This document shows, piece after piece, positions 14,956 through 59,003 of a stretch of 64,000 nucleotides of DNA. This DNA comes from Metridium senile (taxonomy: Eukaryota; Cnidaria; Anthozoa; Actiniaria; Metridiidae), in contig OX459102.1 in assembly GCA_949775045.1 (NCBI GenBank), positions 17,364,160 to 17,428,159 on the forward strand. The letters are read 5' to 3'. The number at the start of each line of letters is the position of its first letter. Position 1 is the stretch's first letter. The notes under the pieces are model-generated. The model was not told the origin of the DNA. It worked only from the letters and a program-made list of their open reading frames with translations, and did not search any database. The position numbers and the translations under genes are program-made.

Positions 14956-17577
14956 TCATCCTAATTCATTTCCTGGAAAAAAATACACAAAAAAAGTCAG
15001 CCTTAACAACTCGAAAAAAGACATACTCTCTGCCGTTAAAAGCTTCTTAAGGCCCGGGCAAACGGTTTCAACATTTGCTTCAACATCCGTTCGATTTTGT
15101 TGAATGGCAATGTTTAAAGGCTTTTTTAAAAACTCTTTCAACATCAATTAAACATCGATTCAACACGTTTCAACAATGTTGAAAGAGTTTAAAAGCGTTT
15201 AAACATTGCAACTCAACAAAATCGAACGGATGTTTAAGCAAATGTTGAAACTGTTTGCCCGGGACTTAACAGCAATTAGAAATGAATAGGATCTTTGTTG
15301 GTAAAAAAGAAAGTTTAAAGTTGACCTACCTTTGCTCAATACTATTTGTATTCCTGTGTCTGGTATACAAGTACCACAATAACCACCACATTGACCAAAT
15401 ACCTTGTTCCCATCCTGGAAAAGAATATCAAAGATAAAAATGAGTTCCCCAGGAATTATTTACTTATGTCAAGTAGGATATTATTTTAGATATTGTCTGG
15501 TATTTACTGGTAACAGACACCATGGAAAAAGAAATGCTAAGCACAGTTTCATAAAAAAGTATACACTCTCCACTAAATGGGGCTGGAGTTGTGCAGTAAA
15601 TTCATGTGTTTGCCAGAACTGAAAGAGCCATAGGTGTAGAACTTACTGGATAAAAGTATATAGTTTGAGATGCTGAGGTCCCTTGAGTTGACCATCTAAT
15701 ATCGAGTGATAATCCAAACCCGGTACCATCTAGATTGATACTAAATCGTCCCTGAAGCAAAGAAGATTTGAAATTCTTTAGTATGGAAGAGCTAATAACA
15801 ACTTATTGATCATCTAGCCAGTTGACTGAGTGACCAAACAATCATCCAATCATTATACCAACCAACAAGCTATCTAGCCAGCCAACTGCCAAACTGACCA
15901 AGCAACAAGCCAGCCAATGAACCTACCAACCAGCCAGGCAACTGACCAGGCAACCAGCTAGTGAATATTTAAGATATTAAGATTGTACTACACTTACTTG
16001 TGGACATTTCTTTCTACTGTAGCAGTCTCCAGCGGTACCGTATGAAGGAGGTTTGTTACCTCTCGTCATTGCAAACTGTAAATCATCGCCTATACAATAA
16101 CAAAAACAAACAGGAAAATTAATGGTAATTTGTAATGACGCAAAGGACGTTAATTCTTCTTCACTGTAAAAAAGGTAACTTGTACACCGTATAAAAGAGT
16201 GCTACTTACTAACGTTATGGACGTTATAATTCTTCTGGAGTGACTCCAGCGTAGGATTAACGTTCGAAAGGTAAGCAACACTCTCATCATGCGGTGTTAA
16301 AGCTACCAATATTGTTTAAATTCTTGCTTAGAAACACATGTTATTGTTGCTTAACAATCTGTTACAAACTTACCATCTATGATCATTTTGGGGAGAACAA
16401 CTCGAACTTTTGAGAAGTAAGAACCACCAGATGACTCGTAGTTGTCACGATGACAAGGACAGCTGTCTGAATGAGACTTGTTTACAGGACAGCTATCTGG
16501 ATTAAGTAATCTAAAATACATGGAATAGAGGAACGTTTCAGTATCAGCTTTATTCCACTATTATACGATTCGTTACTCAGTGGGGACATATTAACTATAT
16601 TAATTTTAACCATATAAAAATTTAACCATTTCTCTCTCTTGATCTTGATCCAAAGATCTATAACAAATTGGGCTCATGCATTTATGAATAGTAGTTCAGT
16701 GTTTCGTCAAGTGCGAGTTCGCTCTTCTGCACACGTGTTTCTATACCAGAAAAATGCACCACAAAGTTTTCCGCTTGTACTTTCTAATAATATATGTACT
16801 TTCTACTAATATAACAGACTAGCACTTCTAGAGCAGGCTTGTACTAGAGCAGGCTTGTACTACTAAAACAGGCTTGTACTACTAAAACAGGCTTGTACTA
16901 CTAGAGCACGCTTGTACTACTAAAACAGGCTTGTACTACTAGACAAACAGGCTTGTACTACTAGAGCAGGTTTGTACTAATAGAACAGTCTTGTACTACT
17001 AGAGCAGCGATCTAGTGCATTCCAACATACATACATGCATGTATTTTATTTTGTTCTTACCTTTTTGAATATATCTCTGAAAAGTTCTCTGTATAACCTT
17101 TCTTAAGAGTGATGTATTCCTTTGGGTTGAGTGTTGTCATACCGTGACAGTAGATCTAAGAAACCAAACAACAGGCAAAATGAATATATTCTAATGGTAT
17201 AGGCCATTTTATGTAATGTTTACAACATTCGCGTCCGTGTTGTATCGGCTATACTAATAATCACGCGTCGAATTAAAAAAAAAAAAAACACATCTAGGTT
17301 ATTTCTTTCTAATTTTACCAAAGATTAAAGTAAATTTCGCCGAAAAATCAGGTTAAAACTTATGTAAATCAGGATATACAACACTAGTATTGTATCAGAT
17401 TTACAACACTTGTCATGGTCATGGTTTGTTAATTTCTCATTAATTCTTCATGTGTTTTTTAGATAAGATTGTTATTAGTACCAACCTTTCGTAGCTTGCC
17501 TTGTATTTCAACAACATGTTCACCATCTGCCTGCAAGCCGCTGGTCAGTTGTATTTCTCTACATGTTTTGGGTGTAC
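14956..17577 (-). CDS. ADAMTS9/ADAMTS20: ADAMTS exons 50-56: GON domain and C-terminus
   Basis: Exons 17486-17577, 17061-17155, 16374-16510, 15998-16089, 15647-15751, 15330-15414 and 14956-14972. Readings diagnostic for GON include [56 protein letters not shown] and [19 protein letters not shown]. The domain has been implicated in ER-to-Golgi trafficking functions in C. elegans GON-1 and in ADAMTS9. The donor of exon 50 is the less usual GTTGGT. The last exon carries only 17 coding nt (GNELG, TGA); its acceptor has a strong pyrimidine run and its phase fits, but it is the least certain piece. Intron 55 contains a complete MITE. Confidence 0.9.

Positions 17578-59003: not shown

What the first reader, a model, noticed from the sequence alone, without database searches (positions are those of the whole stretch)
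14956..59003. A GON-ADAMTS protease with 36 TSP1 repeats
Fifty-six phase-consistent exons give a 2881-residue protein with one central and 35 C-terminal TSP1 repeats before a GON domain. I recall vertebrate ADAMTS9/20 as having 15. The proximal repeats are individual and long; the middle ones are uniform 50-codon exons, which points to a lineage-specific expansion between conserved ends. A rod of this length could set the reach of the enzyme across extracellular matrix.
Basis: partly seen in the sequence, partly recalled or inferred. Interest (0 to 1): 0.78.

Follow-up and report, generated by a model that had tools for sequence, protein, structure and literature searches.

The report
Sea-anemone protease with 36-module rod
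A sea anemone or close kin carries the animal matrix enzyme ADAMTS9/20 with its tail stretched from about 15 to 36 small modules; corals and anemones share the long tail, its middle modules have been replaced in each lineage, and starfish lengthened theirs separately.

Summary
On the minus strand, 56 GT-AG, phase-consistent exons from 59003 to 14956 join into a 2886-residue GON-ADAMTS protein with one central and 35 C-terminal TSP1 repeats before a complete GON domain. It is a hexacoral orthologue of ADAMTS9/20/GON-1, nearest to Nematostella (53% identity; tree 100/99).

It is not peculiar to this species. Six long hexacoral models have 34-38 TSP1. Octocoral orthologues have 17, C. elegans 18, and most bilaterian proteins counted 15. 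Repeat lengths suggest a 9+6 scaffold with about 19-23 uniform 50-residue repeats inserted in hexacorals. Sea stars (27-31) inserted theirs elsewhere.

The ends stay largely one-to-one between species, but the middle has turned over: 19 of 22 middle repeats resemble another repeat of the same protein more than any in Nematostella. Two modes of growth show: an alternating two-repeat (A/B) series, and a recent 150-bp coding minisatellite. Hexacoral rods are strongly basic (+85 to +159, seven measured); sea-star rods are acidic (two measured).

I read the array as a polyvalent, probably glycosaminoglycan-binding tether; that part is inferred. No cDNA was available. Six searches of an open-access library showed no description of the expansion.

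The parts
14956..59003 (-). whole coding span, 56 exons, 2886 aa GON-ADAMTS protein
   Evidence: GT-AG, phases; Pfam; orthologues
57740..59003 (-). exons 1-3: hydrophobic N-terminus and propeptide (Pep_M12B_propep aa 42-128)
   Evidence: signal peptide judged by eye only
47220..51942 (-). exons 4-9: end of propeptide with furin-type RRRSKR (aa 215-220) and zinc metalloprotease with HELAHIFDVSHD (aa 371 on) and Met-turn (aa 397)
45687..46283 (-). exons 10-11: disintegrin-like region
   Evidence: matches to ADAMTS-5, ADAMTS-1, ADAMTS-13 structures
45057..45406 (-). exons 12-13: central TSP1 repeat (repeat 1)
42150..44635 (-). exons 14-19: cysteine-rich region and ADAMTS spacer (aa 691-807), start of repeat 2
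35080..42279 (-). exons 19-26: proximal C-terminal TSP1 repeats 2-8, long and individual; repeats 2-4, 7 and 8 pair reciprocally with Nematostella 2-4, 8 and 9
21731..34412 (-). exons 27-43: middle array, TSP1 repeats 9-30, uniform about 50 codons, all phase 0
26012..30540 (-). exons 32-38: alternating A/B two-repeat units (repeats 14-21)
27705..28004 (-). exon 36: two repeats (A+B) in one exon
23004..23750 (-). exon 41: five repeats in one exon; coding minisatellite, period 150 bp, 4.3 copies
18475..21194 (-). exons 44-49: distal six TSP1 repeats 31-36, one-to-one with Nematostella 29-34
14956..17577 (-). exons 50-56: GON domain (aa 2683-2878) and C-terminus

Best explanation
This is the apparently single-copy hexacoral orthologue of ADAMTS9/ADAMTS20/GON-1, a zinc protease of the extracellular matrix that is secreted and furin-activated in its known relatives. 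Shown here: the gene model, its domains, its place in the clade, the 34-38 repeat counts of hexacorals against 15-18 in most other animals counted, fixed ends and a turned-over middle. Best supported by repeat lengths: a 15-repeat plan (9 proximal including the central one, 6 distal, then GON) received about 20 extra uniform TSP1 repeats between repeats 9 and 10, most simply after hexacorals split from octocorals; the window reads 8+22+6, so one proximal repeat seems lost. The array grew by duplication of a two-repeat A/B unit and by in-exon 150-bp tandem duplication. Inferred: the array is an extended, disulphide-stapled, largely O-fucosylated and strongly basic tether that binds sulphated glycans of the mesoglea at many weak sites, holding the protease (and GON at the far end) in the matrix and limiting where it cuts. 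Because the middle repeats are near-interchangeable binding units, their identity can change freely while their number and charge matter.
For: Gene model and domains; one protease of this kind in the genome, other hits weak (37-51% identity; 32 candidates scored); orthology tree, window with Nematostella 100/99, hexacorals 99/97, Anthozoa 96/94; TSP1 counts by clade; insertion site from repeat lengths; conserved ends and turned-over middle; A/B alternation and minisatellite; 35 of 35 rod repeats with six Cys, 30 of 35 with CxxS/TCG; rod net charge +159 (linkers trimmed) or +163 (untrimmed) here, +85 to +114 in six other hexacorals, against a median of 0.29 per repeat in 171 proteins with 13-16 repeats; the abstract of PMC6393521, seen in the listing, states that secreted, furin-processed ADAMTS9 binds heparan sulphate.
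Against: No transcript of the window gene was available, so exon use is inferred. Six exons have weak acceptors (4, 6, 11, 16, 19, 52, PWM score under 1, with a PWM trained on this gene's TSP1 exons). An older partial Nematostella model (P0006, 1592 aa) carries only 15 repeats, so short forms or bad models exist. The insertion site rests on lengths: aligned by repeat sequence, vertebrate or hemichordate repeats 10-13 find their best partners inside the Nematostella array, not among its distal six. Basic charge is not special to the inserted part: per repeat the ends are more basic than the middle in all 7 hexacorals, and the 17-repeat octocoral rods are as basic or more so; among the 171 proteins with 13-16 repeats the range is -1.0 to 6.73 per repeat, so some short rods are also very basic. 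The window protein evolves fast (end branch 0.83-0.85 against 0.34-0.36 for Nematostella), which could mean relaxed constraint.
Confidence: 0.62

Rival explanations
1. Rod length itself is the function: the array is a spacer or ruler that sets the distance between the catalytic end and the GON end.
For: Total counts stay within 34-38 in 7 hexacorals although the middle repeats are mostly not one-to-one between window, Nematostella and corals. Sea stars reached 27-31 with rods that are acidic in the two measured, so length can be gained without basic charge.
Against: A neutral duplication-loss simulation gives counts as close as these in about 12-14% of runs at matching turnover, so constancy is not significant with three deep lineages. 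Gene conversion would also replace repeats without changing number.
Confidence: 0.22
2. Neutral or slippage-driven growth: phase-0 one-repeat exons and coding minisatellites expand by unequal crossing-over, and the protein merely tolerates it.
For: All middle exons are phase 0; exon 41 is a recent 150-bp tandem array; several intronic minisatellites run into exon starts; other TSP1 arrays lie in single long open frames elsewhere in the genome.
Against: Six cysteines kept in 35 of 35 rod repeats; dN/dS about 0.22-0.26 in all six pairwise comparisons among exon 41 units 1-4, though on few changes; similar counts in the hexacoral models found.
Confidence: 0.14
3. Two or more genes: a protease gene and a separate TSP1-GON gene lie in tandem and have been joined on paper.
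For: No cDNA; the other GON loci found genome-wide (C2, C9) coincide with none of the hits to this gene's protease, so GON proteins without an ADAMTS protease may exist here.
Against: Six hexacoral and many bilaterian orthologues carry protease and GON in one annotated protein; phases run through all 56 exons without a stop.
Confidence: 0.03

Closest known systems
Nematostella vectensis 'ADAMTS 9 isoform X2' (NCBI, P0001, 2811 aa) and coral ADAMTS9/20-like proteins (P0002-P0005, P0007)
   Same: Protease-TSP1-spacer-TSP1 array-GON, 34-38 TSP1, same clade; array at the same place by repeat lengths in Nematostella and Oculina, the two examined
   Different: Middle repeats are mostly not one-to-one with the window (5 of 22 reciprocal best, 3 collinear with Nematostella); one proximal repeat fewer in the window; longer branch
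Vertebrate ADAMTS9 / ADAMTS20
   Same: Protease, central TSP1, spacer, C-terminal TSP1, GON; same clade in the tree
   Different: 15 TSP1; in the manatee protein a rod of 855 aa against 1865 aa and net charge near zero
C. elegans GON-1 (P0129)
   Same: Protease, TSP1 tail and GON; same side of the tree
   Different: 18 TSP1, rod charge +37
Sea-star ADAMTS9-like (Patiria, Acanthaster, Asterias)
   Same: Long GON-ADAMTS, 27-31 TSP1
   Different: In Acanthaster, against the 15-repeat brittle star, the extra repeats lie between 4 and 6 and between 11 and 12; acidic rods in the two measured, Patiria -48 and Acanthaster -18 trimmed or -5 untrimmed; independent origin, since brittle star and crinoid have 15
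Octocoral long ADAMTS (Dendronephthya 53 TSP1, Xenia 38 in a model that ends inside a repeat)
   Same: ADAMTS protease with a very long TSP1 array
   Different: No GON in the Pfam lists; group with shark ADAMTS7, not with the GON clade

Membership tests
GON-ADAMTS (ADAMTS9/20/GON-1) | GON domain at the C-terminus | tested here: met
   PF08685 245.7 bits, aa 2683-2878, profile 2-196 of 199
GON-ADAMTS (ADAMTS9/20/GON-1) | Reprolysin-type catalytic domain with HExxHxxxxxHD and Met-turn | tested here: met
   HELAHIFDVSHD at aa 371, IMAPT at 397; Reprolysin_5 55.7 bits; ADAMTS-5 structure 2rjq E 4.3e-94
GON-ADAMTS (ADAMTS9/20/GON-1) | Propeptide with furin site | tested here: met
   Pep_M12B_propep 47.6 bits; RRRSKR at 215-220; cleavage itself not tested
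GON-ADAMTS (ADAMTS9/20/GON-1) | Signal peptide / secretion | not tested
   hydrophobic N-terminus by eye only; no predictor run
GON-ADAMTS (ADAMTS9/20/GON-1) | Disintegrin-like, central TSP1, Cys-rich, spacer in order | tested here: met
   match to ADAMTS-13 6qig over query 10-477 and ADAMTS-5 9rwm over 432-584; spacer PF05986 42.3 bits; the Pfam Cys-rich models were not hit at E 0.001
GON-ADAMTS (ADAMTS9/20/GON-1) | Phylogenetic placement in the clade | tested here: met
   clade apart from shark ADAMTS7 and octocoral non-GON ADAMTS 100/100; window + Nematostella 100/99
Vertebrate ADAMTS9/20 proper | 15 TSP1 repeats | tested here: not met
   36 here; 89 of the 121 proteins, chiefly vertebrate, have 15
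GON-ADAMTS (ADAMTS9/20/GON-1) | Proteoglycanase activity | not testable with these tools
   needs enzyme assay

The most novel reading that the evidence does not exclude
The hexacoral GON-ADAMTS rod is under selection for total length and charge but not for repeat identity: a gene-encoded ruler or tether whose parts are continually replaced by exon-pair and minisatellite duplication. The 150-bp coding array in exon 41 may still vary in copy number between individuals, so protease reach or anchoring would be polymorphic in natural populations.
Probability: 0.22. Interest if true: 0.72.

Novelty: new variant of a known kind. Interest (0 to 1): 0.5.

Why it matters
In 2005 it was argued, from three vertebrate gene pairs, that ADAMTS tail-repeat numbers are conserved because each repeat has its own role or because a specific number is critical (PMC549037, passages read). 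Hexacorals and sea stars offer a natural test. In hexacorals the number roughly doubled and then stayed near-constant while most middle repeats were replaced; sea stars expanded separately, at other sites. That could separate 'number matters' from 'each repeat matters'. [quoted passage not shown]

Tried and rejected
Automatic exon chaining over-predicted (126 exons, 62) and was replaced by the curated chain. A search of introns for similarity between A/B units found only short dispersed pieces (12 intron pairs in all), so those duplications cannot be dated from introns. The idea that the octocoral 53-repeat ADAMTS is the orthologue was rejected by the tree and by finding separate octocoral GON-ADAMTS with 17 repeats. 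The idea that basic charge arose with the expansion was rejected: the ends and the octocoral rods are as basic or more so. Constancy of length was tested by simulation and is not significant. The A/B alternation test reaches the highest value possible (1152 of 40320 orders tie with it, none exceeds it), but the range 14-21 was chosen after looking. The Foldseek search of the exon-41 model returned TSR proteins (properdin, thrombospondin-1, THSD7A among the best) with low TM-scores, and the model has pTM 0.37, so I take no rod geometry from it. Of the 36 stop-to-stop ORFs of at least 120 aa, I scanned 8 with Pfam: two at 7.9-10.3 kb, outside the gene, hit Cation_efflux over its cut-off; the rest had nothing over a cut-off. 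Left out of the hexacoral counts: the partial Nematostella model P0006 (15 repeats) and two unnamed fragments, P0214 and P0217 (21 and 13 repeats).

Full report
Check of the observation. All 32 hits of a TSP1-like regular expression lie on the minus strand, 31 of them between 18.6 and 39.1 kb and one at 45.3 kb. A chain of 56 exons from ATG at 59003 to a stop ending at 14956 gives 2886 residues; all 55 introns are GT-AG and all phases agree. Introns are 71-5797 bp, median 423. From exon 22 to exon 49 every exon begins in phase 0 at the CS of a repeat, and exons 21-48 end at the W-x4-W stretch. Pfam finds the M12B propeptide (42-128), reprolysin (228-404), ADAMTS spacer (691-807), 35 stretches of TSP1_ADAMTS and a full GON domain (2683-2878). 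An HMM made from the window's repeats counts 36. Weak acceptors at exons 4, 6, 11, 16, 19 and 52 are accepted because, by eye, the Nematostella protein reads alike across those joints.

What it is. Sequence search puts Nematostella ADAMTS9 first (53% over residues 200-1000), then five stony-coral clusters at 45-48%. A tree of the protease-to-spacer part joins the window with Nematostella (100/99) inside hexacorals (99/97), with octocoral GON-ADAMTS as their sister (96/94) and the bilaterian GON-ADAMTS beside them (87/76, weak). In the unnamed 389-Mb genome no second protease of this kind was found among 32 scored candidates; weak hits (37-51% identity) lie on C15 and C3. Other GON-domain loci exist on C9 (three places) and C2.

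TSP1 counts with one and the same HMM: window 36, Nematostella 34, Oculina 35, Pocillopora 38, Acropora 35, Montipora 35, Desmophyllum 38; Patiria 31, Acanthaster 29, Asterias 27; 89 of the 121 proteins of that call have 15, 18 have 14, two have 13, and one caecilian model has 23 with a repeated block. C. elegans GON-1 18, other nematodes 15-18, tick 15, horseshoe crab 17, brittle star 15, tunicates 15, bryozoan 22, periwinkle 18; fewer in some: copepod Tigriopus 12, springtail Orchesella 9, rabbit models 13-14. Octocoral GON-ADAMTS of Xenia and Dendronephthya 17 each; crinoid, two sea urchins, amphioxus, Capitella and Haliotis 15 each; planthopper 12. These counts rest on automatic gene models of public databases; an older partial Nematostella model has only 15 (P0006). 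The six hexacoral proteins are cluster representatives; cluster members were not examined.

Where the extra repeats sit. Repeat lengths are telling. Manatee ADAMTS9 and Nematostella share the pattern of the first nine repeats (lengthened linkers after repeats 6 and 8), and their last six are all 55-65 residues. In Nematostella 19 repeats of 48-52 residues lie between them, in Oculina 20 of 50-54. The window reads 8+22+6; one proximal repeat, by array alignment the fifth, seems lost, though the scores at that place are low. Alignment of the arrays by repeat sequence supports the first part of this plan and leaves the rest open: repeats 10-13 of manatee or Saccoglossus find their partners inside the Nematostella array, and only the last two find theirs at its end. 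So '9+6 with an insertion' is the simplest reading of lengths, and some of the six distal repeats may have shifted. Acanthaster against the 15-repeat brittle star gains its repeats between 4 and 6 and between 11 and 12, and brittle star and crinoid keep 15, so the hexacoral and sea-star rods were lengthened independently. A third long rod, in an octocoral ADAMTS without GON, belongs to another branch.

Turnover of the middle. Between window and Nematostella the first four repeats, repeats 7 and 8, and the last six are reciprocal best matches in order; repeats 5 and 6 are not. Of the 22 middle repeats 19 score higher against another repeat of the window protein than against any Nematostella repeat, against 1 of 14 at the ends; 5 of 22 are reciprocal best and 3 of those collinear. 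Comparisons in the same call: Acropora against Montipora 20 of 21 middle repeats reciprocal and collinear; Oculina against Desmophyllum 16 of 21; Oculina against Pocillopora 16 of 21, 13 collinear; Oculina against Acropora 10 of 21, 8 collinear; Patiria against Acanthaster 15 of 17. Nematostella's own middle is less homogenised (7 of 20 closer to own than to Oculina), which counts against a constant rate of turnover.

How it grew. Repeats 14-21 alternate between two types: mean identity 57.7% at even lags and 43.4% at odd lags, the highest value any order of these eight can give. Their exons match at 66-72% in DNA while introns show only short dispersed pieces, so these duplications are old. 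Exon 36 holds an A and a B repeat without the intron. Exon 41 is different: five repeats in one 747-bp exon, period 150 bp; units 1, 3 and 4 are 92-96% identical in DNA, unit 2 is 81-84% identical to them, the fifth is more diverged, and dN/dS is about 0.22-0.26 in all six comparisons of units 1-4, on few changes. That exon is the most recent growth and the likeliest place for length polymorphism.

Mechanism. Active-site residues, furin site and Met-turn are kept. All 35 rod repeats have six cysteines and 30 carry C-x-x-S/T-C-G, the motif of O-fucosylation (recalled); W-x4-W stands before a repeat's first cysteine in 33 places, the tail-type TSR described in PMC549037 (passages). The rod carries +159 (linkers trimmed) or +163 net charges (untrimmed); six other hexacorals carry +85 to +114 trimmed, manatee -1, Patiria -48 and Acanthaster -18 (-5 untrimmed); 171 proteins with 13-16 repeats have a median of 0.29 per repeat, range -1.0 to 6.73. 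34 of the 35 window rod repeats are net positive. I infer binding to sulphated glycans; the abstract of PMC6393521 (listing) says that secreted ADAMTS9 binds heparan sulphate. Against tying charge to the expansion: per repeat the ends are more basic than the middle in all seven hexacorals, and octocoral rods without expansion are as basic. The expansion therefore multiplies an anthozoan trait rather than creating it.

Length. Counts of 34-38 with replaced middles suggest that number is held. A neutral duplication-loss simulation gives three lineages within three repeats of each other in 12-14% of runs when turnover matches (about 5 of 20 kept one-to-one), so this is a lead, not a result.

Print. 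The listings showed no paper on this expansion; the library holds open-licence PMC papers only. Of papers opened I saw passages: PMC549037, PMC12226136, PMC12549020, PMC5446238, PMC10499240, PMC10381214, PMC6736995. The 2017 survey of cnidarian TSR proteins names ADAMTS as one of the two largest groups; the passages shown give no repeat counts for GON-ADAMTS, and its figures were not held.

Verdict. Its value lies in the two independent lengthenings and in the fixed ends with a replaced middle.

Noticed in passing
41047-41310, 25410-25740, 19390-19499: Intronic tandem copies that include the splice acceptor and first bases of the next exon: three upstream copies for exon 20, four for exon 39, one (58 exon bases) for exon 47, 90-96% identical, i.e. 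strings of decoy 3' splice sites.
   Followed up: partly
7947-10315: Minus-strand ORFs with Pfam Cation_efflux (PF01545), a zinc-transporter-like gene downstream of the protease gene.
   Followed up: no
G000:C9:1987540-1988546, C9:7623925-7626218, C9:7849048-7850466, C2:39886046-39887405: Other GON-domain loci, none of which coincides with a match to this protease; the one near C9:1.99 Mb lies beside TSP1 hits and may match Nematostella LOC5511228, a 4658-aa VWA/TSP1/GON protein.
   Followed up: partly
P0036 (Dendronephthya, 3526 aa) and P0140 (Xenia, 2658 aa): Octocoral ADAMTS without GON but with 53 and at least 38 TSP1 repeats, annotated as SCO-spondin-like and ADAMTS9-like; a third long rod, in another ADAMTS branch.
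   Followed up: partly
14956-59003: The window's protein has a long end branch (0.83-0.85 against 0.34-0.36 for Nematostella) in both trees.
   Followed up: no
G000:C2:37557613-37559688 and C10:12009764-12011008: Other TSP1 arrays inside single long open frames (947 and 442 aa) in the same genome.
   Followed up: no
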